Of a stretch of DNA of 64,000 bases, positions 5,883-62,010 are shown one piece after another. The notes under the pieces are model-generated. The model ran no database searches and was not told where the DNA came from. It worked only from the letters and a program-made list of their open reading frames with translations. Location: the NCBI GenBank assembly GCA_033002965.1, contig JAURVB010000835.1, positions 1-64,000 of the forward strand. Reading direction: 5' to 3'. Position 1 is the first letter of the stretch, and each line of letters begins with the position of its first letter. The position numbers and the translations under genes are program-made. The DNA comes from Piper betle. Taxonomy: Eukaryota > Streptophyta > Magnoliopsida > Piperales > Piperaceae.

Positions 5883-8800
5883 TGTAAAACCCGCAACTCG
5901 AGTCAGGGTTTTATAGTCGTTAGCTGGTCTGTTTGACCGTAGTTTGAGTCGGTTCAGTTTTCAGAACATGTGTGTGGGGCCGAGGCCGACCATGCGCACG
6001 TGCTATGAGGGTTTATGTATACCCATGTATCGATGATAGCGTCAGATACGCATCAGCAAACTAAGTTATCAGTAGATATGAGAGTATAGAGTTGATGATT
6101 TTATTTTTTTTATGTTGTGACCGTAGAATTTGTTTAGGCCGAATAACGCATTAGGACGCGTTAGATGGTATTCGGGTGGGTTATTAGTTATACGACATGT
6201 CATTTGGATGTTGTGATATTTTGTTTGATTTTATGGGATTTTTCCCTATTTTTCTAGATTTTTCTAGGATTTATTCCGAGTCCGTTATCATTCTTGACTC
6301 GAGCCGATGTCGAGTCAAGTCTTATTTACAACTTTGCCACCCCCTATACTTCTCATCTTCCTCCCCCAACCCGCATTTTCACCGCCGCCGCCCTTGAGAC
6401 TTTGCCACCGCCGTCAACGCCGGACAGCCACCGATCGACGCCGCCCAGCCCGGTTGTACCGTCGCCTTGCCACCCCGATCACGCCTGGCCACCGTCCAGC
6501 CATCGCAACGCCGGAAATCGCCCTCGATTTCCTGCCGTTCCCGACGAGATTCCGCCGCCGTCTGCGCCGGACCGCCGCCACCAAGACGCCGGAGCTTCTC
6601 CCCTCGACTTCCCCTACCTTTCCCCCTGCTTAGCGCCGCCATCGAGGCCAGCCGTGGGTCTGATCGGAGCGGCCGACCGCCCCGACCGCACTAGACGCCG
6701 CCGTTGGTGGCCATCGCCGCCGCAGCTGCCCTCGTCGTCACCACCGTTAGGTCTAGCTCACCGAGACGGTGCTAACCCCTACCTCCGATTGCCTTGCCAG
6801 AACAGCCACCAGAAAACCACTGGAGCTGTCGGAAAACCGCCGACTCGCCTTCACCGCCTTCGTTCGTCGGCACCGATTTCAGCGCCGATCGCAAGGTGGT
6901 TCTTCCTTCTTTTTTAGAATTATTACATACATGTTGTGGTCATAGTAGCATATTAGAATTAATTTTATTAACTTCATGATTTTAGTTTAATTAATCGTGA
7001 TTATGATAAACATGTGATGATTAGCGTAGATTGTGTTGTATGATGTCAATGCTCACTAATGAAATTGTTAGTAAACCATTGAATAGTTAATTAGATGCTT
7101 GTTAACTAGTTAATTTATGAAATTGTATGAATTAGGTTTTGCATGCTAGCATTAAGTTAAACAGATTAAATTGATTAAACCATTGTCACCTAATTAGAAT
7201 AGGTATGCTTTGAAATTGGAATTAAAAGTGCTAGGTAATAAGTAACATATGAGATGATAAAATTATTAACTTGCTTGACAATTAGAGATGTAGGGTAATT
7301 GTCGAGATGATTGTCATGTTTGATTAGATGATTGTATGCATGTGGATATATTAGTTATATAGGCGTGCATCATATATGTATGGGCATTAGTAAATAGTTA
7401 TGTTCATGTACGTTCGTTGCAGGAGCTTGCCGTCTAGGCACGAGACTGCGCTTAGAGCTTCTGACAGGTCCGTTAGGACACACTTCTCAGGTTTTATCAC
7501 TCTATTCTATCGGTGATTTGATTTATTGATTGTAGGACGTGTCAGGTGGATGATTTATTGGACCCCACCTAACACGGGTCACCTAGTCGATGTTTTTCGG
7601 AATTAATAACCCTCGAGGATGAGATCCCTCGAGTTTGTTTTCGAAAATAAGATCCACCTCAAGTTGCCTTCGGGCCTATTATAATAAATCCCGACCCAGT
7701 CCTATAAATAGTTTTATCGAGTTTTTAGTGAGACAAGAGAAGATGAGTCGACTGCACGTACCATGAGCGAATGTCGTGCCAGTCAAAGCGGGCTCTGGAT
7801 TAGTGCCAGCGGACTGTTCCATTCCTGATGGATCCTGACAACTCCGCGTTTGAGTTCCTCACACCCGGAGGATGTGGAGGTTTACGGGTATTGTTTAGTA
7901 TAGCGCATGTCCGGACTTGTGGTTCAAAGGGTAATAAAGGCGACTGCCTGAGAGTGCTCGGTCTACGTGCTCAAGGCCAGGAGTAATATGGAGGTTCTGA
8001 GAGGGCTTAGGATAAAAGTTTTACGTGAAGTACTGAAAATGAAGTGTCGTGAGCGGCACAGTACCAGATAGATTGGGATGCTATTGAGTCAGCTGCTCGA
8101 CGGCTCCTTTGTAGTTGCCCTTATGAGAGTTCTTGAGGAAGATATGTATGATGGTTTGCTTTCCATGAGAGTTTGCTCTCATGTTCCAATTTGATATTAG
8201 TTATTTCCGGACCAGTGACACTCGTTGCTGACGTTTTTCTACTATATGTAGGTGAGAATGATGAATGGTGTATGCCGGCCTTGATGAAGGAGTAGCGCTT
8301 GCATTGTACACACAAACCTGGTGCCGCGCCGACTTTTGCGTAAGATGTGATGTGATTGGCTTTTGTAATAGATTTACATATTAGTATTTATGCATGTGTT
8401 TGTGAGGCTTGTATGCCATGCTTTAGAAATGTGTGGAAATGTTTGAGAAAAGCTCTAATGATGTGCTATCCTGAAATGAAAAGGAACCAAATAAGCTGAG
8501 TATGAGATTGCAGGTGGGCTAGACCCAATTATAGTATGTGTGGATGATTTGAAGTCTATTGCGATATAAATTATTGTTTTATATATATACTATATTGTGT
8601 CGTATTTTAACAGGTCGCCCCCTTATTGCACTTTTAGGGGAGGTTCTGTCCGTTTTATTCCAGGTTTTATGAAGTTTGTTGCTATTTTAATTATTTTGGT
8701 GTGTGGTTTTTATCATGACATTCACGTAGTATCCTTTTAGGGTTTTGCATCTCATTCATATATTGTTTGTGCATTAGCGGCGTGCTCCATTTTGAGACAT

Positions 8801-9703: not shown

Positions 9704-11379
9704 GTATATATGTGCTATTCATATAATTGCAACAAACACATCTTCCACAAATTGCAGCAAGATTTGACGCAAATATCAGATTTACATATATGTCAGAAAG
9801 ACGCAACAAAGCTGGTCATGATATATAGTGCATAGTTATTTACATGGATCTAAGGTGTTGGATAAGAAGCCTCCATAGCAATTCCACAAAGTCCTTCCTT
9901 AGCATCCACATCCCTTTGCTTCCTAATATACCCATTCTCACCCCAATTGCTACCCCATGAATTCTTCACTAGCCAATACTTGGTCCCATCCTCATCCTTC
10001 CCATAGCCAACTGCTGTAACACCATGGTCCAAACTTGTGCCACAAGGTCCAGTAAACACCCCACCTGAGTAGAATTGGAAGGCCAAGCCGCCGGCATCGA
10101 TGGCGACAGAGATGGGCTGGTTTGCGACGGCCTTCAACAGCGCCTTTTCGTTGTTGGCCGGCACATCTTCATGGCTTGTGATCTTGGCAGCATCGTTGGA
10201 TGCCGCCTTAGTGTTGCAGCTATCATCAGTTCCCACGTATGGATAGTTAGCTTCGGTGGTGAGGCCACCATTTTTTTGGCTGAAATTGAAGGCGTCGTCC
10301 ATTAGACCACCATTGCATCCTTGGTCTTCTCCCTTGGTGTCACAATCTACAAGCTCTTGCTCAGACAAAGAGATCAATTTGCTGGTCTTTAGCTTGTGAA
10401 TTCCTTCCATGGCTGCAACAGCCGAAAATGCACAGCAACATCCTGCATTAAATTAAGAGTACTGGATTATTTGCCCATGTTATCAATGTTAATTCATTAG
10501 CTCACAAATGCAAGTCTCTTGAGCACTTAGACCCGCGGGACAAATTATATATGACACTTGAAAACCCTGCTATTATATGCACTTAACTTGTTGGAACATA
10601 TATTCAACATCTAACAGAATCATGGGCGGAGGTCAATATATGAATGGAAGGGATATATAACATGTGGAAGACAAACCTTCTCAAAACAACTAGTTAGCCA
10701 CTTTTGGGTTAAGAGGCTCATTACCTTACACTTCAATAAAATTAGCGTGTAAATGTGTTAATTCTATTTCGAGTCCCTCAATACAAGAAAAGGCTTTAAT
10801 GAAGAAATTTTGTCGCGGGAGCTTCAAATTCTTCGCTTTTATTATCACTCAAGCACATTTTTTTGTAGTGCCTAAATAGTCAGTGATGTGTGAACTATTG
10901 GAATAAAAACATCTTGATCACAAGCTTCATAACTCATTGTAATAAGTTGTAATTGCAAAGATTTGAATTAAAAGAATATAATTTTTCTAATTATATTTAT
11001 GATGCTTACCACATTGGCCTTGGTCCTTGACAGGAGTGACTGCACCCTTTTTCCTCCAGTCCATAGCAGGGGGTGCAGTCACATTTTCATACATGAAGGA
11101 AGATGTAGAACTATCTCCTGCTCTAATTTTAGAAGGTATAAATCCATTGCGAGAGAACTTGAACTCCTCATTTGTAAGGTCTGCAAACTCGTTCACAGCA
11201 AGCACAAAAGAATTGCTTCCTGCTTTGTTGAATGCTTCAATGTATTCAACATTGCTCTTGAATATCTCCAACCTTCTCTCCCTTTCAGAGGCACCCGGAT
11301 ACACTCGCCCATACTTGGACATCCACTGTTCATGCCTCTCTACCATGGCAGTGTCATGTAATGTCCGGGCATTGACATT

Positions 11380-13018
11380 CCTAGAATTAGGTTATTTTAT
11401 TTAGGGTTTTATAAATCTTAACCGAACCATAAATAATATTTAATTAAATAAATTCTTAAGAATAAATATCATTTATAACACATTCGTATTCACTTAATAG
11501 TAAGTTTTTGACTTTATATTATCACACAAATGATACAATAATGAGTGATTACGTTCTTTTATATAAAATTTAATGTAATGACTTCTTAAATTCTACACAT
11601 ATTACTAAAATTTAATATAATGACTTTTTGAATTGCACACATATTATTTTATATAAAGGAGAGTTCTATTGTTAAATAAAACATCCTCTAGATAGGTTGT
11701 GAGCACATTTGACACACAAATGGGAAGACTTTAGGATTATTTGTTATAGTTGCGGGTTCTTCACCAAATTTTCAGCCTGAGCTCAGATTCGATCACCATG
11801 CACTGAGTGCAACCAGGGTCAAGGAATTGACTCAGTCTGACACAAACTATACCCTTCATAATCAAATAATGGACATGTCAGAATGGACCTGACAGCCATA
11901 ATACAATAAATTGGACATAGTAGATTGGACTCGCCAGCCAATTACAGAAATGGTAGACTAACCCATCAGCCAATAGATGGACATTGTAGACTGACCCATC
12001 AGCCAATAAATTAGACATGGCGGATTGGACTTGCCAGCCAATTACGAGCATGTCAGATTGGACTCCCCAGCCGGTAACGGACATGGCGGATTGGACTCCC
12101 CAGTCGGTAACGGACATTGCGGATTGGACTCGCCAGCCGGTAACGGACATGATGGACTGACCTATCAGCCAATAAATTGGACATGGAGGATTGGACTCGC
12201 CAGCCAATTACGGATATGGTGGATTGGACTCACCAGCCGATAACGGACATTGCAGATTGGACCGCCAGCCGGTAATGGATATAATGGACTGACCCATTAG
12301 CCAATAAATTGGACATGGCGGATTGGACTCACCAGCCAATTATGGACATGGTGGACTGACCCATTAGCCAATTACGGACATGGTGGATTGACCCATCAAC
12401 CAACTAACGGACATGGTAGATTGGACCCATCAACCGATAACGGACATGGTGGATTGGACTCACCAGCCATTAACGGACATAACGGATAAAACTCACTAGC
12501 CGATAATGGACATGGCGGATTGGACTCGCCAACCGATAATGGACATGATGAACTGACCCATCAGCCAATGGATGGACATGGTGGACTGACCCATCAACCA
12601 ACTAATGGGCATGGTGGACTGAACCATCAGCTAATAAATGGACATGTTGGAATGGTCACAACAGACATTATTATAAATAATGATAGGGAGTTTATGGACT
12701 TGTTTTATTTAATTATACGGATTAGTGTTTTTATTACTAACGCAAAATTGTCTCCATAGGTATGAACATGGAAGGATGGGTAGAGTCGGGACAGCTGGAG
12801 GACTCTATTATTGGACTATTCTTTTCTCGAGATTGTTTACATGGCAGTGAGATTTTGGTTCGGTTCATAGGACTTAGATTATTTCGAGCATTTATATATT
12901 AAATTTATTATTGTGGAATTATTAAAAATCTTGAAAATTAATAAGAAATTAATTTATGAGACACTTAGTTTCATATAGTAACGCTTGGCTCGTGGCTCGA
13001 AACGGGCGGGTTGTTACA
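11380..13018 (-). mobile_element. Solo-LTR-like insertion (about 1.64 kb) in the protease signal-peptide codons
   Basis: On the minus strand the insertion begins TGTAACAACCCG (right end 13018) exactly where the signal-peptide reading frame breaks. The protease frame resumes at 11379. Comparison with the intact paralogue, which reads Ala-Asp-Asp-Val-Met-Ala-Arg here, shows that the flanks rejoin as Ala-Asn-Asn-Val-Asn-Ala-Arg. A TG start, no coding potential and an internal minisatellite fit a solo LTR. A canonical CA end and a clean target-site duplication are not resolved at the left end, so that border is uncertain by about 10 bp. Confidence 0.65.
11871..12655. repeat. 33-34 bp minisatellite, about 22 copies, inside the LTR-like insertion
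   Basis: Units follow the pattern GGACATGG-(C/T)-GGATTGGACTC-(A/G/C)-CCAGCC then a short variable tail (GGTAACG, AATTACG, AATAAATTG). A second subtype reads ATGGACTGACCCATCAGCC. Because 33 is divisible by three, the repeat stays open in several frames and gives spurious repetitive ORFs on both strands (for example 11878-12207 and 12025-12243). It lies wholly inside the inserted element. Confidence 0.9.
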
Positions 13019-16184: not shown

Positions 16185-19100
16185 ATGGCAAACAATGTTT
16201 GGCAATACAAAATGTCCAGGTCAATCATTGGCATCAAATGCTATGCTTTTAAACTCTTCAATTCGTTATCCATATCCAATTCATGTTCATGCTCCTTCAT
16301 TTGTAACAATTTGGTTGAATGCAAAGAATTTTTTGCTTTGGAAATCTTAGATCCTGAATTTGATCGAATCACACAATTGTATTGGATTTATTGATGGATC
16401 TGTTCATTCTCCTCTACATATTGGTTCTTCTAATTCCATTGGGGTTAATGGAGAATTTTTGGCATGGAAAAGGATTGATAAATTGATAAAGGGATGGATA
16501 ATTGGATGGTTGAGTGAAGCAATTCTTCGTCAAGTTGTTGGACTGAATACAGCTGCAGATGTGTAGAAATTATTAAAGTAATATTTCAACAAAAAGACTA
16601 TGGATAGGGAGTTAGTATTACATCATCAGCTGAAAACATTACGAAGAGATAATTGTGAATCTCTCGATAACTACCTTCTGAAATTCAAAGCAATTTGTGA
16701 TGACCTAGCTGCAATCAACAAGCAACTTATGGTTAATAGAAAGTCATTTTGGTTACTGAATGGCCTAGGAGAAAATTATCAAATGTTCACTTCTATGACT
16801 TTGAGGCCACCATTACCTAACTATATTGAATTGTTGTCAATGTTGCATAGTTATGAATCCAGGATTTTACTTCATGATTCAAATTTGGTGGCACAAAAAG
16901 TTGCACTTGCTGCAAACAAGTATGAAAAGGCAAAAGCAAATGTTCAGAAGTTCACTTCAGAGAATCGAGGCTTTGAACCTGCCGCAATGACAAATTCCTT
17001 GACTTCAGAACTAGCAAACAAGCTCACTATTAATGCTGATGCAAACAGATTTGTTTTCCAACCTGTCAAGTCTGATGAAGAACTCAAAAAAGCTTTACAC
17101 AAATTTAAAACTGTCTGTCAAATTTGTCGCAAGCCATGACACACTGCTTTCAAGTGTTTCAAACTAAACACAGTATTCAAGGAGAAAAAGTCATCTGATG
17201 AGGTTAAGCATGCTCAGAATGCTCTGAGTGCTTTCCAGGCTCAGAATGTTGATGTCAATCCATGGCTACCTGACTCAGGTGCGTCCTCCCACATGACTGG
17301 AAATCTCCTCTTATTTGATGATCATGTGTGCTATGATAAATCAAATGTTGTGTTTATTGGTGATGGAAAACAATTAGATATTGAACACGTTGGTCTTATT
17401 AGTATATATACTATTTCTAGACCAGTAAAACTAACAAATGTGCTGCATGTACCTTCTTTACAACAAAATTTGTTGTCATTTAGTTAGTTCACCTTTGACC
17501 ATAATTGTGTTTTTCGATTTAACTCTGAGGGATTCTATGCGACTGACAGAAGGTCTAGAAGAGTAATTCTATCTGGCACTAGAACATGCAACATATACAA
17601 TATCACGTTTGGAAAACATATTGGTCTTTATTCAAATCGACAAAGGAAGACATCATATTTATTTTGGCACTTCAGACTCGGTCATTACTCTTTTGATACA
17701 CTTAAAGTTTTGAAGACACAAGGACACATACAAACAACATCTGAGAAGTTTGATTCTACTGTTTGTAGCTGTCAACTAGAAAATCTACCAAATTACCTTT
17801 CTTAGACAGTGATGCTAGATCTAATGTTCCTTTCCGTAAAATTCATTGTGATTTGTGGAGACCAGCTCTGTCAACTAAAAAATTTAGATATTTTTCTACT
17901 TTTATTGATGATTGTACTAGGTTTATATGGTTCTATCCATTATACAATAAATTTGGCTTCGTTATTATCTTCAAATTATTTGAGAAACTTGTTGATCAAC
18001 AGTTTTCTGCCAAAATAAAGTGTCTTCAGACTGATAGAGGGGGAGAATTTACAAGCCATGTTCTTCAAACATACTTGGCTGAGAAGGGAATTTTGCATCA
18101 AGTAACATGTCCTCATACTCCTGAACAGAATGGAGTTGCTGAACGAAGTCATAGATCCATTGTAGAGATTGGTCTAGCTCAGTTATTTTACAGCAAAGTG
18201 TCAAGTTAATTTTGGGTACATAGTTTCCAAATTGTTGTTTATGTGCTCAATAGGAGGCCATCATATGTTTTGCCCAACAATTCATCTCTATTTTTCAAAT
18301 TATTCAAAAGAGAGTCTGACTATTCCTCCTTACGAGTGTTTCATTGTAGGTGCTATCCATGTCTTTGAGCATACAACACTAATAAGTTTCAGCCACGTTC
18401 TCATCCATGTGTGTTCTTAGGGTATAAGACATCCTATAAAGGTTATGTGTGTTATAATCCTCAAACTAGAAATTTTCATTTATCAAGACATGTGATTTTT
18501 GATGAACAAGTTTTTCCTTTTGTTGTCACTGGTCATAGTACTTCAGCTCCATCCTCTCAAGCAAGTTTTAATACTTATTTAGACTTTGTTCCTTTGCCTA
18601 ATATGCTATCATTTACAACCAGACAAGATGAAGCATTGTTTTCACCTGTTCAAGAAAATTGACTTGATCCTCATGACTTAACTGTTTTCACAATCGATAG
18701 TAATGAAGAGAATAGTCAATTTTGCATTCAGAGTGTGATGCTTCAATTCCATCTTCTTCTAAGTCCAAGAATGTTGAAGGCCACTCAATGATTACTAGAT
18801 CCAAAGCATGTATTCTGAAACCAAATCCAAAATATGCTTTGATCACAAGTGTTGAAGCTATTACCGAACCTAATCCAGTCAAGGCTACACTTTCTCATCC
18901 TGGATGGTTAAAGCAATGCAAGATGAACTAGCTGCTTTGGAGGAGAATGATACATGGGAGCTGGTTGATAGGGACAGACATATGAATATCATTGGTACAC
19001 AGTGGATTTTTAAAGTAAAATACAATGCTGACAATACTATTGAGAGATTGAAAGCTCGACTAGTTGCAAAATGTTATAATCAGCAATAAGGTGTTGATTA

Positions 19101-20361
19101 TTTAGAAACATTCTCACTTGTTGTCAAGCCATCAACTGTAAGACTTGTTTTATCTCTTATTGCTATCAAAAATTGGTTTGTGCACCAAATGGATGTTAAG
19201 AATGCATTCCTTAATGGTGAGTTGTAAGAAACTATTTACCTTTCTCATCCACCAGGGTTTAAGAATGCATTGTTTCCAAATGCTGTTTGCAGACTTAAGA
19301 AAGCTTTATATGGTCTTAAGCAGGCACCGAAGGCTTGGTACAACAAGTTCAGCTCGTTCTTATTTTCTCAGGGGTTTCTGTCCTGTAATGTTGATTCTTC
19401 TTTGTTTGTTTTGAAACAAGATGATAACATTGTCGTTCTTCTTTTATATATTGATGACATGTTAATTACTGGAAATACATCAAGTCTATTAGACAAGTTT
19501 TTGATTCAACTTCAACAGGAGTTTACTATGACGGATCTTGGACAGGTTCATCATTTCCTTGGTATTTAAGTGCAAACTTTAACATCAAGTTTTTTCTTAT
19601 CTCAAAAGAGGTATGCTCTCCAGTTACTCCAGAAAGCAAGGCTACTGTATTGTAAACCATTGTCCATGCCAATGGTTAACAAGCTTACTATTCAAGAGAA
19701 TTCTCCTCTACTCTGCAATCCAACTTTGTAGAGGGAATTAATTGGTTCATTGTAATATCTAACATTTACGAGACCTAATATTATGTTTGCTATTAATTGG
19801 GTATGTCAGCATATGCATAACCCTATTGAATTTCATCTTGCTCAAATGAAGAGAATTCTGTGATATGTAAAGGGCACTCCGGAGTATGGGCATTTTCTTA
19901 CATCTAATACTGATTTTCAGCTTTCAACTTACTCTAATGCAGATTGGGCAGGTTGTCAAACTACACGAAGATCTACTAAAGGATACTGCACTTTTGTTGG
20001 TGCTAATTGTATTTCATGGTCTTCTAATAAACAACCGACTATTTCTAGATCAAGCACAGAAGCTGAATATCGCGCCATGGTTGTTGTTGCAGCTGAAATA
20101 AATTGGATCACCTATTTACTCTAAGATCTTCACATACTTCAATCTAATGTTCATGTGCTCTATTGTGACAATCTTAGTGTTTTGTTTCTCTCTGTCAATC
20201 CTATTTTCCATGCTCATACTAAGCATATTGAGATTGATTATCATTTTGTGCAAGAACAAGTTGCTCTGAAAAAGATTGAAACACGACATCTCTCCACAAC
20301 AAAACAACATGCTGATATTTTAACCAAGGCCTTATTGTATCAACCTTTCTTCAGAATTTTG
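16185..20361 (+). pseudogene. Degenerate Copia gag-pol polyprotein
   Basis: Translated segments in order: a gag-like region (about 16300-17110), a CCHC knuckle (17116-17160) with a TGA inside it, aspartic protease motif DSGASSHM (about 17272), a GAG-pre-integrase segment (about 17660), and an integrase core (about 17840-18200, with DRGGEF and the PEQNGVAERSH segment). Reverse transcriptase follows (about 18905-19570, with [24 protein letters not shown] and the catalytic YIDDM near 19447). RNase H is last (about 20040-20340, with SRSSTEAEYRA and HADILTKAL). In-frame stops and frameshifts interrupt gag, integrase, reverse transcriptase and RNase H, so the element is not autonomous. Confidence 0.92.
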
Positions 20362-21075: not shown

Positions 21076-22225
21076 CTAAGCAGTTGGGTAAGAAGCCTGC
21101 ATGGCAATGCCACAAAGTCCTGCCTCTTCATCCACATCCCTCTCCATCCTTATATACCCATTCTCCCCCCAACTAGTCCCCCATGAATTCTTCACCAGCC
21201 AATACTTGGTCCCATCCTCATCTTTGCCATAGCCAACCGCAGTCACACCGTGGTCCAAATCGGTGCCACAAGGTCCGGTGAACACCCCACCTGAGTAGAA
21301 CTGGAAGGCAGAGCCACCCGCATCAATGGCCACAGACACGGGCTGCTTTGCCACTGCCTTCAACAAGGCCTTCTCGTTGTTGGCAGGAACGTCTGCGTGG
21401 CCGGTGATTGCCGCGGCATGGCTTGATGACTTCTTGGTGTTGCAGCTATCGTCTGTTCCGACGTATGGATAGTTGGCTTCGGTGGTGAGACCGTCGTTTT
21501 GCAGTATGAAGTCGAAGGCGTCGTCCATGAGCCCTCCCTCGCATCCTTGGTCTTCCCCGCTTGTGTCACAATCTACCAGCTCTTGCTCCGACAAAGAGAT
21601 CAGTTTCCCGGCCTTCAGCTTGTGGATTCCTTCCATGGCTTCGACAGCCGAAAAGGCCCAGCAACATCCTATGTATTCAATCACAATAAAATCATCACAA
21701 CATTGTTCATCGATTAGAAGATATATATATATATAAAAGAGTAATCGGCAGAAAAATGTTATAAGATGCATGTTATGGCCGCTAGTTGTTGGGATGTTTA
21801 CCGCATTGGCCTTGATCCTTGATGGGTGTGACTGCACCCTTCTTTCTCCAATCCATGCTTGAGGGTGCAGTCACATTTGCATGAGTGAAAGAAGATGTCT
21901 CCGTTTTAAGCTTGTTAGAGGGTTTGAAGCCATTGCGCGAGGCCCTGAACTCGTCGTTGGTAAGGTCTGCAAAGCCATTGACATCTAACCTGTACGAGTT
22001 GGTGCCAGCCCTGTTGGATGACTCGATGAACTCCACATTGTTCTTGAAAATCTGGAATCTTTTCTCCTTCTCATTAGCGTCGGCATAAACTCGCCGACAC
22101 TCAGACATCCACTTCTCGTGTCTCTCTCTCAGGTATGTGTCTTGCAGTGTTCGGGCCATGACGTCGTCGGCCAAGGCAGCCAAGATGAAGAGAAGCGCGT
22201 ACGAAAAGATTTTTACGTAAGCCAT
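21076..22225 (-). CDS. SAG12-like papain-family cysteine protease (intact)
   Basis: Two exons, 21802-22225 and 21076-21668, give a 338-residue pre-pro-protease, close to the usual length of SAG12-type enzymes (about 340). The ATG at 22225 opens a hydrophobic signal peptide. The prodomain (about 30-120) has an ERFNIN-type helix and a GNFD-like region, and the mature domain starts near the [13 protein letters not shown] segment. Catalytic residues by position are Cys144 (in GQCGCCWAF, the intron falling inside the GQCG codon), His281 (LDHG) and Asn302 (KNSWG). There is no C-terminal KDEL, so a vacuolar or secreted rather than ER-derived ricinosome role is expected. The family degrades protein during senescence and programmed cell death. 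The other copy at 9850-13071 is a disrupted duplicate. Splice phases close exactly (1,017 nt). Confidence 0.93.
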
Positions 22226-22315
22226 GAAAGTAATATTGTCTGTAGGAAACTGATTTTCACTCCAGTGCTGATCAATTGGTTTAGATTTAGTGAAGAAGGC
22301 AGAACCATGTTAGAG

Positions 22316-45026: not shown

Positions 45027-46411
45027 CTACTTTCTTGTGCTGGCACATCTAAACCAAAGAATAAGAAAACAGAGCAGCCTGTATCCACATATGAAACTCA
45101 ACATCACTCCCAAGTTGCTCCACTTTCGAGATTCTTTCTGCCCCTGCTGTTCTATAAACCCTTCACCATTTAACATACAAACTCCATTGTCCACCTCCAC
45201 ACATCTCCATCTATTCCTATCTCCTCCGTACTCATTTATCATAAAAGCCTCAAACGGGTACTTGGAACAAACTCATATAATGCATGAAAATCCAGTACTT
45301 TCGTGTGTAGTTCTTCCGAATGAAGTACCCGGAGAAGAGGAAGAAAGACCCCATGAAACCCTCAATCAGGGAGTTCCCCATGATAAAATTGGGAACCAAG
45401 GCGCTAAGGTAGGCGACAAAGGAGTTGGCCATGAGCAACACCATCCATACAACCAAGTTGAAGTAGAAGAAACCATCTACTTCTCTTGTAAGCCTCACAA
45501 GCCAGTACACAGTTAGTATATAGAAATGCAACCATCAAGAGAAATGGCGGGAAAATCAGAGTGTTTGATCTAGCATAGGAAGAAACTCTGTTGCTACCTC
45601 TTGACGTTTCTCTCATGAGGATCCTCCTCTCTTGCAAGAAGATTGGAAGGCCTTCTGTGGTGGAAGAGAGCAGAAATGTGAGACTAAATGGAAAGAAACC
45701 CAGCCTGGTTTGTAATGCCACGGGCCCTCCATTACGATCTGCGTTGATGAAGATGGATCCTAGAGCCAGAGCCACCACCAAAGCATGGATTGTTATAGCA
45801 TCGAAAATCTGCTTGATCCTAAATATGTTATTGCAGAATCTCTGCCCAAGTATTAACACCTCTCTGCACCTAGAATTTGCGTAAGAGAATTGGGTTTCTT
45901 CCATACTACTTAATCTATTATGCATACCCACGCAATGTGCAGCCTCTTCTTCTTCCCCGTTACTCTGGAACTTCTCTGCTGCATCAGAATCCGCATTCCA
46001 TAATAACCTGTTACCTATAATTGATTTCTTTTTTACGGCCAAGCTCTCCATGGCATCAATGGCATACTCGAGCACATTAACATGCCGGGGAATGCAATGG
46101 CCGGACGCCCGTAGCTGGGTCTCAAGTGGCTTCAATGATCCATGGTGGATGACACCTCCTTCGGATAGAAGAATCACTCTATCAAAAAGCTCGAGGATTC
46201 TAAAACCCGGCTGGTGGATTGTTAGGACGATCGTCTTACCTTGCTTGACGGCCATGGCCTTGAGCAGAGACATAACACAGTGAGCAGAGGCCGAATCAAG
46301 ACCAGAAGTAGGCTCATCCAGCAGCAACACCGGCGGATCATGCACGAGATCAACTCCAATGGACACCCGCTGGAGATTCCCCTGACGCCGTCACGGTGGC
46401 CGACGCAGGCC

Positions 46412-46621
46412 TTAGTGTTGTTAATTATTGTGCTATTTAAATTACTTGATAAAATTATGTCTGGAGTTGGTTTTTAAGCGGACCGTGTGTCCCACCACAC
46501 TTTCCTGAGAATTTTATCTTTGGGTAATTTTTAGTACAATAGTTTTCACACTAGTCATCTAGGTAATAGTTCTCAAAGTGAACTAGTAATCTTTGGTGAA
46601 AATTACCCAGTTTTCACAACA
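46412..46621 (+). repeat. Truncated LTR of the left foldback arm
   Basis: Corresponds to the 3' part of the LTR at 48348-48823. It begins GTTGTTAATTATTGTGC and ends CACAACA just before the tRNA-Met primer-binding site (TGGTATCAAGAGC, about 46624-46636). The 5' half of this LTR is missing, and ABCG codons abut it directly. Confidence 0.85.
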
Positions 46622-46774
46622 ATTGGTATCAAGAGCAAGGTTTATTTTTAGCTATGACTCAATCGTGGCCAGTTACATTTTAGTTGCTCTACGCTGATCT
46701 TCCACATCAGAAAAATTTCCTTGGGCTACTTGGTATTCTGCATTAACATCTATTAAATAGACTTTATAGCAGAA

Positions 46775-47426
46775 ATGACAGACAACCCAAAAGAATCTAC
46801 ATCGAAGGTCACAGCTTCATCTTCAATTTTGGCAAGAACTACTGTGACAAATGCAAGATTTGCAGTGGAGATTTTTGATGGTACCGGTCATTTCGACATG
46901 TGGCAAAGTGAGGTTCTGGATGCCCTTTTTCAACAGGGTCTAGACATTGCCATTGAAGAAGAGAAACTGGATGATGTTGAGGAGAAAGAATGGAAGACAA
47001 TAAATAGATTGACATGTGGTACCATTCGAACGTGTCTTTCTAGAGAGCAGAGGTATGCATTTTCTAAAGAAACTTCTGCAAGTAAATTGTGGAAGGCACT
47101 TCGGAGGGGAGAAATGCTTGAAGAAAAGCAGTAAGAACAAGCTCTATATGAAAAAGAGATTGTTCCGCTTCAATTATGTTCCTGGTACATCTCTGAATGA
47201 TCATATTACTAGTTTCAATCAGCTAGTAATTGATCTGGTTAATATGGATGTGACTTTTGAAGATGAAGATTTGGCTCTGATGTTGTTGGGATCACTTCCT
47301 CATGAATTTGAGTTTCTTGAAACTACTCTACTTCATGGGAAGGTTGCTGTGTCTCTTAGTGAAGTAGTTGCTGCCTTGTATAGTTATGAATTAAGAAAGA
47401 AAGAAAAGCAAGAAAATACAAGTGCA
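46775..47426 (+). pseudogene. Copia gag fragment, left foldback arm
   Basis: Frames 46775-47134 and 47016-47543 together encode a UBN2-type gag fragment. A few extra bases at about 47100 (CTTCGGAGGGGAG against TTGGAGGAG in the other arm) cause a frameshift. It stops at the arm tip, so no knuckle or protease follows. Confidence 0.85.
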
Positions 47427-47472
47427 CTTGTATTTTCGATCAGCCTCTATCCACAACAAGAGCTTCTGCTTC

Positions 47473-48121
47473 TGCACTTGTATTTTCTTGCTTTTCTTTC
47501 TTTCTTAATTCATAACTATACAAGGCAGCAACTACTTCACTAAGAGACACAAGCAACCTTCCCATGAAGTAGAGTAGTTTCAAGAAACTCAAATTCATGA
47601 GGAAGTGATCCCAACAACATCAGAGCCAAATCTTCATCTTCAAAAGTCACATCCATATTCACCAGATCAATTACTAGCTGATTGAAACTAGTAATATGAT
47701 CATTCAGAGATGTACCAGGAACATAATTGAAGCGGAACAATCTCTTTTTCATATAGAGCTTGTTCTGACTGCTTTTCTTCAAGCATTTCTCCTCCAATGC
47801 CTTCCACAATTTACTTGCAGAAGTTTCTTTAGAAAATGCATACCTCTGCTCTCTAGAAAGACACGTTCGAATGGTACCACATGTCAATCTATTTATTGTC
47901 TTCCATTCTTTCTCCTCAACATCATCTGGTTTCTCTTCTTCAATGGCAATGTCTAGACCCTGTTGAAAAAGGGCATCCAGAACCTCACTTTGCCACATGC
48001 CGAAATGACCGGTACCATCAAAAATCTCCACTGCAAATCTTGCATTTGTCACAGTAGTTCTTGCCAAAATTGAAGATGAAGCTGTGACCTTCGATGTGGA
48101 TTCTTTTGGGTTGTCTGCCAT
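47473..48121 (-). pseudogene. Copia gag fragment, right foldback arm
   Basis: A continuous 193-codon minus frame from ATG 48121 to 47540, and beyond it the mirror of the left arm up to the loop. Same gag as the left arm, lacking its frameshift. Truncated at the loop, so it cannot be a complete gag. Confidence 0.85.
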
Positions 48122-48159
48122 TTCTGCTACAAAGTCTATTTAATAGCTGTTAATGCGGA

Positions 48160-48332
48160 ATACCAACTAGCCCAAGGAAATTTTTTCTGATGTGGAAGAT
48201 CAGCGTAAGCCGCAACCACAGAGCATACTAAAATAAACCAAGAGCTCAAAATGTCAACTGGCCCAAGGAAATTTTTTCTGATGTGGAAGATCAGCGTAAG
48301 CCGCAACCACAGAGCATACTAAAATAAACCTT
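48160..48332. repeat. Tandem duplication, about 91-bp period, two copies
   Basis: The leader segment beginning GCCCAAGGAAATTTTTTCTG and ending CAGAGCATACTAAAATAAAC occurs at about 48171 and again at about 48262 in the right arm only. The left arm has one diverged copy, so the duplication arose after the two arms formed or only in one source copy. Confidence 0.8.
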
Positions 48333-48347
48333 GCTCTTGATACCAAT

Positions 48348-48823
48348 TGTTGTGAAAACTGGGTAATTTTTACCAAAGATAACTAGTTCACTTTGAGAAC
48401 TATTACCTAGATGACTAGCGTGAAAACTATTGTACTAAAAATTACCCCAAGATAAAATTCCCAGGAAAGTGTGGTGGGACACACGGTCCGCTTAAAAACC
48501 AACTCCTAGACAGAATTTTATCAAGTAATTTAAATAGCACAATAATTAACAACAACTATACCCGACAATAGCTATTAAATAGACATAAAAGGAACAAAAA
48601 GAACACTGAAATTTAACGAGGCTTACGTCCTCGGACACTACAAAAATAATATTTCAATAATCAAAGAAATATTACAAAAGAGAGAAAGAAAACAATTTAC
48701 CAAAGAAAGAAGGATGACAATTTTTTGGATGTCAAGAACTAAAGGGGAGGAGCCTTATTTATGAGGAGAGGACTCCTCCCAAACCCACAAAACTTTAGAT
48801 GTGGGACTTGATTTTAGCATACA
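48348..48823 (-). repeat. Complete LTR of the right foldback arm
   Basis: 476 bp on minus, TGTATGC... to ...CACAACA, followed by the primer-binding site TGGTATCAAGAGC (plus 48333-48345 as its complement). Contains an ATAAATAAGG TATA-like motif in its 5' half, the usual place of an LTR promoter. Confidence 0.85.
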
Positions 48824-49857
48824 ATACTTAGAACCTGCTACATGGTCCAAACCGAGCTCAGGTAGCAAGGCCTGCACTCTTGCCGTGGCTTCTCTTTTAG
48901 TGCAACCAAGCCTCAACATGGCACTGTACAATAGCGTCTCCTCCACCGTTAGAAGTGGGAAGAGTACATCATCTTGAGTGAGATAGCCAGGGACCATCCT
49001 AAAGTTCTTGACATCCATGGGCAGCTCATTGACATCCACCACTCCGGAGATCCTACCCTGCAGTGCCACTCCTGAGAGGACCTCAAGCAGCGTTGTCTTC
49101 CCGGAGATAGCCAGTTGGGCCAATGATAGCCAAGACCACGCCGGTGGCGGCGGTGCAAGTGACCCCTCTTAGAATGTACTTGGTGCCACTCTTCGGATTT
49201 TAATAGACAAAATTAATAAATTCTTTAATATGTTTTGACAAAAAATAACAAGAGTTAATAAATATATAATAATTTAATGTGAAACCTCAGAATATAAGAG
49301 AAACCATAAACTATTCACTATTATCAATAATACGTAAACAAATTATTCCCATTGAAAATCCTCACAAACTCTCCAATTAGAAGCAACTCACAATATCTAA
49401 TTGAAACACATTTCAATTAGGAATGACAATTATCTCCAACTAAGATACACATCTAATTGAAAAATTCACAATTCACATTTAAAACGGCACTCTAAATTGT
49501 GTACTCTTTTCAATTCAATTATATCTCCACTTACCTCACAATACAATTACATATATGTAGAAAAAAAATGCAAACTCAAGATACAACTAATTTCGTAGAT
49601 ACGAAGAACCAAACAACAAATACTCTTCATCTTTTATAATTCTACTCAAATTCTTCATACCTCTTAGAGTAATTTTATATCTTTATAATTCTCCATGTAG
49701 TTATATGTCTATTCGCATTCATCATATGATGAAGGACTCCAACACCTATACCTGCACTTGATACTATAGAACAAGTTCTCTGTCTTGACCGTAACTGCCT
49801 CTGATGGCCGGATTCCCGCATCTTCACCAGAAGCTCCATCGATTCAGATGATAGCAA

Positions 49858-58502: not shown

Positions 58503-61500
58503 TTAAAGGCTGTAGTGCCTGACTGAGTGCTCCAGAACTTGCCGGCTTGGACATATCATTTCCTTCACACGAGCACCATTTTTGTATATTTTGAATGTGG
58601 GAACAATTCTCACATTTTCAGCATTGGCCAAAGACGGGCTCTTGTCCAAATTCACCTTCAATAAATCAGACAGGTTATAGAGGTTGATCCAATGCAATTA
58701 AGAATGATAAAAATAAGAGAAACCAGCATATATGAATAGGTTGTCCAAATTCACCTTGAGAAAATTCACAGATGGATACTTGGCACACAGCTCATCAACA
58801 AATGGGGATATCTCTTGGCAGTAAATATTTGACGTCAGCATGAAGTACACCACAAAAACCCCTGGAATGTATTGTTTGTCATGAATAAGAATGAAGATTG
58901 CATTACAAATAATTTGGCTTTTATATGTGAGGAATGAGACAAACCAGGAGAAGACACTTCCTCCTTGAAAGGTTCTAAGCCAGAAATTTCCTCAACTTCA
59001 CCGCCAAACTTCAAGTTATGTACATCTTCACCACGATATTTTTTTAAAGCCACCTGTGCATGAAATAGAGCTTCGGCAACTTCATTGTCCCTGGGAAGTT
59101 CTTTCCTCAAGATTTCGTAATCTCTAACAGAATCGCCCCATCTCTCAAGCTGTATTTGCAAGACGAGATTTACATCAACAACACATTTTGAAGTGACAAA
59201 ATAACAAGAGCATGCAAGAGTAAAAAGGATAGAAAAATAACCTTGTCATTGCATGCAGCTCGCCTAAGTAGTGCTTTTCTGTAATTCGGTAGCATTCTCA
59301 AAGCTTCGTTGCAATCATCAACAGCTTTCTCCCACTGTCCAAGTTTGTATCTGCAAGCTGCCCTATTGCAGAGAAGAACAGGATTATAGGGATCAAATTT
59401 GAGACCCTCGCCATATGCCATACACGCATCAAGAATCTTGCCCATATTGAAAAGGTCATTTCCTCGAACCCTAGCTCTTGCAGCTGATCTAACATTGTTT
59501 ATAACCATTGTGACTTCAATATTCCGAGAATCAAACTGTTCAGCTTTTCCAGCAGCCTCAACTGCACTCTCAAACCTGCAAACATCTCCAATCCATTGTT
59601 ACTAGCTCAAAAACTCCTCAGCATACGGGAACAAACTGTTTAAGATGTAAATTCACCTTCCCATGGCCATCTCTACTAGTGCACGGACAAAATATGGGTA
59701 GGAATCACAAAGCATTCCACAGAATTTAGTTTGTGCACAAGACGGAGAAGAGATTTCGTATCTGGGGATCTTCAACAGGGCGGAATCCGCTTCAGCAAGC
59801 TGGTGGAGCTTGAGAAGAGCTTCTGCCCTTAATGCATAAAGCTGCACGAGAGTGATTTGAATAAAATCTCAATGGAAAAAAGAAAAAAGATGAGTAAATA
59901 TATTTCTTACACGCAAGAATACTAACTTGAGGAGAAGAGTCTGCACCAGCAGCAATGGCCGCATCACCTTCCCTCATGGCGCTGTTCCAATCTCCAATCT
60001 TTCGAGCATCTACACATTTCCTAATATGTTTTTCCACTGTTTGAAGTTTCTGCAATTCCACAGAATCAGGTAACTGCGTGGAAAATAGATGTCTCCTAGC
60101 ATTCTCAGCCTGTCCAAACCTGGATAGAAGATCGAAACATTGTTCATTTGAGTATACTCCGGACAAGCACAAAATAAACCTAAATGAAGTGAAACCTTAA
60201 TTCCCCCAAAAATTGGAAAACGAAGACAACACAATCGATCCGTTGAAAAGAAAAAAATCAGCAAAAAATAATTTGTCCAAATTGTCGCAGTAGGTTTCGA
60301 ATGGTTTAAACAACAACATTCACTAAGAAAGACTGAACAAAATTTAACTAGCCCAACCAGTTCAATCAGTTTTCATGGCACAAGGCATCTGCATAGAAGC
60401 GCATACTATCGCTTTTCTCATCAATCTACCACCAATTCCCGCAGCGATGAAACTCCCCTCAACAGAAAAAGGAGAATATCCTATTCATTGAAATGTTAAA
60501 ACACAAGGACAAAACTGGAGTAAAAAAAGAGCAATTTTCCGTTTCCAACATCAAACTAAAATAGGTAAAACTCACAGCTAATCAATCTGTTAGAGACTTA
60601 CAGTTACAATGCGGATGAACATCAAATAAGTAGAATAGTAATCAACTACAAGAAACGCTCCACAAATGCGGGCCAAACGCAAAGAATTCAACTTTACCGT
60701 AGATGGAGAGAAGCCAATCTCTGGTGCGCTCTCCCGAAGGTGGGATCGACCCTTAGCGCCTCCTCGCATTCCGCCGCCGCCTCCACCAGCCGCCCTAGCC
60801 CGATGAGCGCCGCCGCCCGGTTGGTCCGGCACGCCGCACTGTCGGGCGCCATGGCAATCGCCTTGTCGTAGAGCCCCAGCGCCTCCGAAAAGTTTCCCCT
60901 TTTGTACTCCTCGTTGCCCACTCTCCTCACCTCCTCCGGATCCCCGCTCATGATCGCCCGCCGCCGCATCACCTCCACCCCCGCCGTCAATATATTCCCC
61001 GTCGCCGCCGCCGCCGGGGTTGGCGCCGCGGCTGACTCCCCCGCCGCCCGCCCCCGCATTACGCTCCCGTGCCCGTAGTTCCCGGTGCCCGACCCGAGAA
61101 CGTCGCACCGCGTCGAGCTCCGCCCGGCCGCAGCCGTCATTGGCGTCGCTTTCCCGATCCGCCCCGGCCGACAAATGTTCCCGCTCGGGAGCACATTGGC
61201 GGCGGTCACCGGGGACGTCGCCGACGAGCTCCCGCCGCCGCCGGGGGAGTAGATCAGAGAGCCGGAGCTGGAGCGGGCGTGGCCGGGGCGGGGCCGGGAC
61301 GACCCGGGTGCCGTCGGTGAGCCGTCGCTGGACCCGGAGAGCTCGCCGGAGTGGCTCTCCGCCCTCCTCCCCACTGCATTGGCGGATCCCGCCCGCCCCG
61401 ACCCCGACGAGCTGGAGCTCGAGCTCGCCGACTTGGTCGCCGGCTGCGTCCGGAGCGGCGAGATCGGCGAGCCCAGATCCAGCTCCTTGAAGTCGGGCTT

Positions 61501-61587
61501 GTCTGCCCCCCACCCCACCGCCGCATCGAACCTCACCGCCAGCCCTTCCAACTCCAGCTTCCGCCGTTCCCCGTCAGAATGCGCCAT
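58503..61587 (-). CDS. TTL1: TPR repeat-containing thioredoxin-like protein, TTL1 type
   Basis: Seven exons (60698-61587, 59927-60119, 59657-59841, 59242-59575, 58945-59149, 58755-58861, 58503-58655) give 688 aa with all phases closing, matching the usual length (about 690-700). The Ser/Gly/Pro-rich N-terminus (1-200) is disordered. TPR repeats start at about 212 ([20 protein letters not shown]) and continue in a second block (about 430-535, [20 protein letters not shown] onward). The thioredoxin fold is C-terminal (about 600-688, [19 protein letters not shown], then [13 protein letters not shown]). The redox CGPC motif is replaced by SNIYCQEI, as in other TTLs, so it is a binding rather than redox domain. 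Arabidopsis TTLs scaffold brassinosteroid signalling and aid osmotic-stress tolerance. The ATG at 61587 is preferred over the longer in-frame extension to 61770, which reads like leader sequence. Assignment to TTL1 rather than TTL3/4 is tentative. Confidence 0.93.
58642..58757. repeat. 17-bp direct repeat at both ends of TTL intron 6
   Basis: TTGTCCAAATTCACCTT occurs at 58642-58658 and 58741-58757, exactly at the two splice junctions (sense AAG|GTGAATTTGGACAA). The 99-bp intron is therefore framed by copies of the exon 7 start. Confidence 0.9.
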
Positions 61588-62010
61588 CTTCCCACTCCAC
61601 CACCCCTCAAAAACGCAATCTTGGTCGCCCTCGCCGTCTCCCAAGGCGCTCAAGCTTCGAAAGAGAGACGGTGTCGAAGAAGGAGTGAGGTAGACATGAA
61701 GAGATGGGGATCCCGTGAAGGGAAGCAAGGAATGAATGTGGTGGGTGGTGTGTATATGGAAAAAGTGCAAAAGAAAGAAAGCAGAAGGAGAAGGGGAGGA
61801 AGAAGAGGAAGGAGGAGGAGAAGGAACAGAGAGAGGTGTGGTTGTCTTCTTCTTCCCAGCTCTCCTCTTCTCCTTCCTCTCCTTCTATACACTCCTCTCC
61901 CTCTTCTTATCTTTTTCTTTATTACTTATTAGCAGCTTCTTATTAATGTCAACATTATTTTTAAAAAGTATTTTATTTCATCTAATCCTCCCCCTTAACT
62001 CTAATTGTTA
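61588..62010 (-). promoter_or_regulatory. TTL 5' leader and proximal promoter, purine-rich on plus
   Basis: The region just upstream of the ATG is CT-rich on the sense strand, with GGA/GAA repeats on plus at about 61785-61826, typical of plant 5' leaders. Several short ORFs on both strands arise from this low complexity. No TATA box could be chosen confidently. Confidence 0.4.

What the first reader, a model, noticed from the sequence alone, without database searches (positions are those of the whole stretch)
46412..48823. Natural Copia hairpin locus: ~1-kb inverted LTR-gag arms with a 46-nt loop inside a transporter pseudogene
Seen in sequence: the same Copia 5' region appears in opposite orientations, meeting head to head at 47426/47473 with high similarity. 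A transcript through it would fold into a ~1-kb dsRNA, the classic source of DCL-processed siRNAs that could silence related Tork-type Copia elements in trans. The complete LTR on the right arm has its own TATA-like motif and points inward, so it could drive the hairpin. Role in silencing is inference.
Basis: partly seen in the sequence, partly recalled or inferred. Interest (0 to 1): 0.8.

Follow-up and report, generated by a model that had tools for sequence, protein, structure and literature searches.

The report
Palindromic Copia insertion in transporter pseudogene
A plant jumping gene was apparently copied into a mirror-image DNA and inserted in one step into a transporter gene, leaving a site that could make a long hairpin RNA; whether it is read or silences anything is untested.

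Summary
Two inverted arms (46416-47426, 47473-48554) agree at 983 of 1004 ungapped positions, and the right arm continues into a complete 479-nt LTR. New here: the whole is one insertion. A 5-bp duplication, CTTAG, brackets it, and the flanks without it align ungapped to an intact ABCG10-like transporter. So the palindrome probably existed as cDNA before integrase inserted it; two insertions, a later inversion or a fold-back artefact are unlikely. The left end is a cut LTR starting at its only TGTTG, the complement of the LTR's CAACA end, which suggests a cryptic integrase end. The turn holds a 26-bp perfect palindrome, and right-arm gag runs past it, as strand switching would leave.

The right LTR points inward and a transcript would fold into a ~1-kb stem (994 inter-arm pairs predicted), so the siRNA idea is structurally sound. 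Expression, siRNAs, silencing and the Tork label are untested; the host genome could not be searched. Filed as a new variant of a known kind: a composite insertion from aberrant reverse transcription.

The parts
46411..46415 (.). target-site duplication, left copy (CTTAG)
   Evidence: exact 5-bp repeat abutting the boundary of arm homology; of 12 x 16 pairs of cut points tried only this one gave 5 matching bases
48827..48831 (.). target-site duplication, right copy (CTTAG)
   Evidence: only CTTAG starting in 48790-48869; 41 in the whole window
46416..48826 (.). whole palindromic Copia insertion
   Evidence: empty site aligns ungapped to P0122
46416..46621 (+). left arm: truncated LTR (last 206 nt), beginning TGTTG and ending CACAACA
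   Evidence: the boundary is the only TGTTG of the LTR (offset 272 of 479)
46624..46774 (+). left arm: primer-binding-site-like TGGTATCAAGAGC and shortened, scrambled leader
   Evidence: the PBS label is recalled
46775..47424 (+). left arm: broken gag fragment (net 4-nt insertion near 47100)
47412..47437 (.). 26-bp perfect palindrome at the turn
47427..47472 (.). 46-nt spacer between the aligned arms; on the minus strand most of it reads as further gag (EAEALVV..RG), found in the right arm only
   Evidence: compare P0046 and P0004
47438..48121 (-). right arm: gag with Pfam PF14223 (scan of 47552-48121) and a 1-nt insertion near 47552
48159..48330 (-). right arm leader: 91-nt tandem duplication (81-nt copies matched at 96%)
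   Evidence: (D1, spacing 91)
48348..48826 (-). complete 479-nt LTR (TATTG...CAACA), pointing inward
48755..48762 (-). TATA-like ATAAATAA in the inward-pointing LTR
   Evidence: the meaning of the motif is recalled
45030..49827 (-). host ABCG10-like half-transporter pseudogene, interrupted by the element

Best explanation
A Copia element was reverse-transcribed abnormally. The growing strand ran through LTR, leader and gag, then switched strands inside gag at a self-complementary spot and ran back through gag, leader and part of the LTR, on its own or on a closely related template. This made a head-to-head palindromic cDNA with one true LTR end and one end inside the LTR that happens to read TGTTG/CAACA. 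Integrase joined this DNA in one event to an ABCG10-like gene, giving the 5-bp duplication. What is left is a locus in which the inward LTR, or read-through on the host gene's strand, could produce an RNA that folds into a stem of about 1 kb and feeds Dicer-like enzymes. Shown: inverted anatomy, TSD, clean empty site, LTR direction, predicted fold. Inferred: strand switch by reverse transcriptase, integrase use of a cryptic end, any transcription or silencing. I think it most likely that the locus is now a quiet relic that can be a hairpin source but has no regular role.
For: CTTAG abuts both ends. The joined flanks align without a gap to P0122 residues 51-166 across the site, 78.4% identity (the first residues lie in the frame shifted by the Walker A lesion). 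The left end is the only TGTTG among 475 positions of the LTR; plain TG starts 31 positions and 20 of 475 lie within one mismatch of TGTTG. TGTTG is the complement of the LTR 3' end CAACA. The turn has a 26-bp palindrome and an asymmetric gag end; the extra gag resembles P0046 and P0004. Both arms share five gag residues absent from the 13 aligned relatives (P5 in a variable column; T80, C113, L139, I151), so they come from one lineage. The assumed 2315-nt transcript folds at -1780 kcal/mol with 994 of 1062 pairs between the arms, against -544 to -556 for three mononucleotide shuffles and -598 for one neighbouring stretch. Template-switched Copia composites integrated with 5-bp TSDs have precedent (PMC1950507, whole text).
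Against: The leaders differ between the arms far more than the rest and most gag changes lie on the left arm, which suggests two related parents rather than self-copying. The right end reads TATTG, not TGTTG: a mutation, or a natural TA start (TA..CA ends are cited for tomato TARE1 in PMC5659011, passages); no family copy was available. The match at the left end was noticed after the fact. Relatives' DNA past the turn was not available, so the switch points are read from the window and from two proteins only. No RNA, read or methylation data.
Confidence: 0.72

Rival explanations
1. Two broken cDNAs from two related parent elements were joined head to head at their gag ends by host end-joining, giving a palindrome with two U3 ends, which integrase then inserted. 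The left LTR later lost its first 272 nt by deletion between two TGTTGT repeats.
For: Leader differences between the arms and the left-arm excess of gag changes (5 of 6, binomial p=0.22) fit two parents; TGTTGT at the left boundary could be a deletion footprint; the TSD is explained equally well.
Against: The deletion would have to start exactly at the outermost bases. The 13-nt inverted copy at the turn looks more like copying than plain joining. The arms share five unusual gag residues. A TGTTG at the U3 end is inferred: the sequence reads TATTG.
Confidence: 0.2
2. Two separate Copia insertions in opposite orientation at the same place, or one insertion followed by inversion or duplication in the chromosome.
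For: A nested antisense insertion of one Copia family into itself has been reported (EVD in Arabidopsis, PMC11624286, passages).
Against: One TSD brackets both arms; the spacer between the arms is gag sequence, not host DNA; blastn shows no further LTR copies in the element beyond the two arms; the empty site is clean.
Confidence: 0.04
3. A working silencer: the locus is transcribed, yields 21-24-nt siRNAs and silences its parent Copia family in trans, as proposed for Mu killer and MuDR. (This can be true together with the best explanation.)
For: Anatomy: inward LTR with a TATA-like motif, 13 perfect duplex runs of 21 nt or more and 535 positions for perfect 24-mers. Mu killer precedent (PMC3440606, abstract and passages; PMC2725412, passages).
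Against: No expression, small-RNA or methylation data; no family copies could be searched; 2.1% arm divergence suggests it is not recent. For Mu killer, PMC3440606 proposes shorter antisense transcripts as a new model and reports a centre that could not be sequenced. For EVD, PMC11624286 says the hairpin route had earlier been deemed unlikely, did not test its nested locus as a source, and notes that hairpins usually give several siRNA sizes while that plant's LTR siRNAs were mainly 24 nt.
Confidence: 0.2
4. Assembly or library artefact (fold-back chimera).
For: Inverted chimeras occur in some libraries (recalled), and no reads were available.
Against: The arms differ by 21 substitutions and several indels, whereas a fold-back read gives identical arms; the host gene continues in register on both sides with a TSD.
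Confidence: 0.03

Closest known systems
Template-switching complex Copia insertions (Angela, Squiq, Opie; Sabot and Schulman 2007, PMC1950507, whole text)
   Same: Composite LTR-retrotransposon cDNA thought to form during reverse transcription, then inserted once with a 5-bp TSD
   Different: Those hold an internal third LTR and two complete cores; this one is head-to-head, has one full and one cut LTR, and carries only 5' sequence
Mu killer (Muk) of maize
   Same: Natural inverted duplication of part of a transposon, of similar size (about 1300 bp of mudrA in PMC3440606, passages), able in principle to give a hairpin RNA
   Different: Muk derives from a DNA transposon and has shown silencing; its proposed long transcript reads through from a flanking gene; here the source is a Copia element with its own inward LTR and no functional evidence
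Antisense nested EVD insertion in Arabidopsis (PMC11624286)
   Same: Copia LTRs in opposite orientations proposed as a hairpin source
   Different: That arose by a second insertion into the first; here one TSD brackets both arms (passages)
Autointegration products of retroelements (inverted 2-LTR circles, described in PMC4751563)
   Same: Inversion within element cDNA
   Different: Those are extrachromosomal circles (passages); this is a linear palindrome in the chromosome with a TSD
DIRS-1 elements (PMC5633606)
   Same: LTRs in inverted orientation
   Different: DIRS-1 carries a tyrosine recombinase in place of a canonical integrase (passages); here the gag is Copia-type and there is a 5-bp TSD

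Membership tests
Ty1/Copia LTR retrotransposon (as a non-autonomous derivative) | Copia-type gag | tested here: met
   Right-arm gag: Pfam PF14223, E=2.5e-22, 79.6 bits, cut-off 27; the 117-aa left-arm fragment alone gave 0 families at E<=0.01
Ty1/Copia LTR retrotransposon (as a non-autonomous derivative) | 5-bp target-site duplication | tested here: met
   CTTAG on both sides; clean empty site
Ty1/Copia LTR retrotransposon (as a non-autonomous derivative) | Order of integrase and reverse transcriptase in pol | not testable with these tools
   No pol to test: frames of 110 aa or more inside the element are gag ones
Tork / TNT1 lineage | Reverse transcriptase phylogeny | not testable with these tools
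   No RT in the element; several gag relatives carry the source label 'transposon TNT 1-94', which is only a label
Template-switching complex (Sabot and Schulman) | One TSD around a composite element | tested here: met
Template-switching complex (Sabot and Schulman) | Internal LTR, two complete cores, similar outer LTRs | tested here: not met
   No internal LTR, no complete core, left LTR truncated
Muk-like natural hairpin silencer | Inverted duplication of transposon sequence | tested here: met
Muk-like natural hairpin silencer | Transcription, siRNAs and silencing of the family in trans | not testable with these tools
DIRS | No target-site duplication (recalled) | tested here: not met
   A 5-bp TSD is present
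DIRS | Tyrosine recombinase | not tested
   No model of it was searched; no frame of 110 aa or more other than gag lies wholly inside the element

The most novel reading that the evidence does not exclude
A palindromic Copia derivative that carries its own inward promoter: integrase accepted a cryptic TGTTG end, so a head-to-head unit could insert, and the resulting locus makes a ~1-kb hairpin RNA that silences its parent family. If several copies of the same unit exist, it would be a mobile, self-made silencer of an LTR retrotransposon.
Probability: 0.12. Interest if true: 0.78.

Novelty: new variant of a known kind. Interest (0 to 1): 0.42.

Why it matters
How plants first recognise a new LTR retrotransposon is unsettled (PMC11624286, abstract start and passages), and chance hairpins are one proposed trigger. 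This locus shows a route by which one failed transposition event could create such a hairpin in a single step, with an inward LTR. The cryptic LTR end also makes a testable claim about what a Copia integrase will accept. If only a relic, it is still a clean natural record of strand switching in a retrotransposon cDNA.

Tried and rejected
Two-insertion and later-inversion origins: disfavoured because one TSD brackets the whole. Fold-back artefact: disfavoured because the arms have diverged. DIRS: considered because of inverted LTRs, not supported. Other copies of the element in the window: none at E<=1e-3. Relatives in viral contigs: by protein 3 stretches matched a pattern and 0 were confirmed; by an exact 24-base LTR pattern 0. 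tRNA scan of the window: 0.

Dating by arm divergence: K=0.021 gives 0.8, 1.6 or 7.1 million years with three recalled rates; valid only if the arms were identical at insertion, so I do not rely on it. Mismatch gradient: 5 of 496 columns within 500 nt of the turn against 16 of 508 beyond, Fisher p=0.025; the cut was chosen after seeing the bins, and 3 of the 16 lie in the poorly aligned leader. Left-arm excess of gag changes: 5 of 6 by my hand count, which includes the ambiguous A2T, p=0.22: not significant. Transitions between the arms: 9 with A/T on the left and G/C on the right, 3 the other way; not tested.

Paper searches, 10 of 10: among the rows listed I saw no title or abstract start that describes a head-to-head palindromic LTR-retrotransposon insertion with a TSD. 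Lists were capped and the library is open-access only, so this is weak evidence of novelty. Passages seen but not used in the argument: PMC9780303, PMC5668417, PMC13317346.

Full report
What is there. The window looks like plant nuclear DNA. The interrupted transporter is closest to an unnamed protein (P0122, 86% identity over 92% of the query) and then to ABCG10-like proteins of Aristolochia, Magnolia, Tasmannia and Cinnamomum at 61-63%, which hints at a magnoliid-like host (120 of 1669 hits listed, 7994 candidates scored). The finding is real: inverted arms 46416-47426 and 47473-48554, 21 mismatches in 1004 ungapped columns plus indels, blastn 1535 nt at 95.4% with E=0.0. No other part of the window matches the element at E<=1e-3.

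One insertion. The five bases before the left boundary, CTTAG, are repeated at 48827-48831 (the only one of 12 x 16 pairs of cut points tried with five matching bases); this is the only CTTAG starting in 48790-48869, against 41 in the window. Taking out the element and one CTTAG gives ...LDHVAGSKACVGHRDGVRGIS.... P0122 residues 51-166 align across the site without a gap at 78.4% identity; the first few residues of that match lie in a frame shifted by another lesion. Five base pairs is the length characteristic of Copia duplications (PMC1950507). So the palindrome was inserted as a unit. This disfavours two-step origins, and with the arm divergence it argues against a fold-back artefact.

Anatomy of the arms. 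The right arm, read on the minus strand, is a 479-nt LTR (48348-48826), a primer-binding-site-like TGGTATCAAGAGC (recalled label), a leader with a 91-nt tandem duplication and gag from ATG 48121. Its gag matches Pfam PF14223, E=2.5e-22, and 139 proteins at E<=0.001 among 193 candidates (120 listed), several labelled 'transposon TNT 1-94' by their source. The left arm has only the last 206 nt of the LTR (46416-46621), a shorter, scrambled leader and a frameshifted gag from 46775; its first 117 gag residues alone gave no Pfam family. No pol-like frame of 110 aa or more lies in the element.

The left end. The left boundary falls on the only TGTTG of the LTR (1 of 475 positions; TG starts 31; 20 lie within one mismatch of TGTTG). 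The LTR ends in CAACA, whose complement is TGTTG, so the inserted DNA ends in ACAACA-3' on one strand just as the LTR 3' end does. The other end reads TATTG, one base from TGTTG: a mutation, or a natural TA start of the kind cited for tomato TARE1 (PMC5659011, passages); no family copy was on hand to decide. A cryptic integrase end explains why the truncation abuts the TSD. A later deletion between TGTTGT repeats is the alternative, but it must begin exactly at the outermost bases. The match was noticed after the fact.

The turn. The arms meet at a 26-bp perfect palindrome, 47412-47437. Most of the 46-nt spacer is not foreign: on the minus strand it continues gag as EAEALVV(D)RG (reading's sequence; the frame is broken by the 1-nt insertion), resembling P0046 and P0004, and it is missing from the left arm. 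A 13-nt inverted copy next to an asymmetric gag end fits strand switching during synthesis better than plain joining. This is inference.

One or two parents. Both arms share five gag residues absent from the 13 relatives aligned with them (P5 in a variable column, T80, C113, L139, I151; 13 of the 139 found), so they come from one lineage. Against a single template: the leaders differ much more than the rest; G41D, P65L, Q119K and a net 4-nt insertion lie on the left and one 1-nt insertion on the right (p=0.22); mismatches are denser away from the turn (p=0.025, cut chosen after seeing the bins, 3 of the 16 outer mismatches in the poorly aligned leader). Two closely related RNAs are as likely as one.

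Could it make a hairpin RNA. The right LTR points inward, with a TATA-like motif at 48755-48762. The host gene also lies on the minus strand, so either could read through. A 2315-nt transcript assumed from 48730 to 46416 folds at -1780 kcal/mol with 994 of 1062 pairs joining the arms; three mononucleotide shuffles give -544 to -556 and one neighbouring stretch -598. There are 13 perfect duplex runs of 21 nt or more. The start site is assumed. Nothing here shows that RNA is made.

The host gene. ABCG10-like, 45030-49827 on the minus strand, with further lesions relative to P0122: frameshifts at 49110-49129 (Walker A region), 46366-46381 (ABC signature region), about 45515-45522 and 45244-45263, and 551 nt (49194-49744) that P0122 lacks. 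The names of the motifs are recalled. The order of these events is unknown.

What is known. Template-switched Copia composites with TSDs exist in grasses but have an internal third LTR and two complete cores (PMC1950507, whole text). Muk of maize is a natural transposon inverted duplication that silences; one paper on it also proposes shorter antisense transcripts (PMC3440606, abstract and passages; PMC2725412, passages). A nested antisense EVD insertion has been suggested as a hairpin source but was not tested as one (PMC11624286, passages). Autointegration gives inverted circles (PMC4751563, passages). None of these, as far as I read them, is a chromosomal head-to-head Copia palindrome with one TSD; ten searches of an open-access library listed none in the rows shown, which is weak evidence.

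Verdict. The anatomy is confirmed and extended; origin by one integrase-mediated insertion of a palindromic cDNA is well supported; the silencing role is plausible and untested. The genome search did not answer in eleven tries, so copy number and parents are open.

Noticed in passing
49194-49744: 551 nt that the relative P0122 lacks, within the same transporter pseudogene, starting TGTTGGAGTCC on the minus strand; an insertion or an intron; no clear target-site duplication seen by eye.
   Followed up: partly
2620-4920 and 5883-8260: A second, much older-looking inverted duplication: 2620-3495 against 8260-7382 (74% over 902 columns) and 4026-4920 against 6772-5883 (70% over 919).
   Followed up: no
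16582-19569: Open frames that read like gag and pol of another Copia element (naming mine); no blastn match to the palindrome.
   Followed up: no
9850-11391 and 21076-22309: Two papain-like cysteine protease gene copies on the minus strand, 83% identical over 595 nt; the naming is mine from the sequence.
   Followed up: no
11866-12670: Overlapping direct repeats, 71-77% alike at offsets of about 170 to 640 nt, a likely degenerate tandem array.
   Followed up: no
59170-61884: Open frames on the minus strand that look like a TPR-repeat protein (naming mine, not searched).
   Followed up: no
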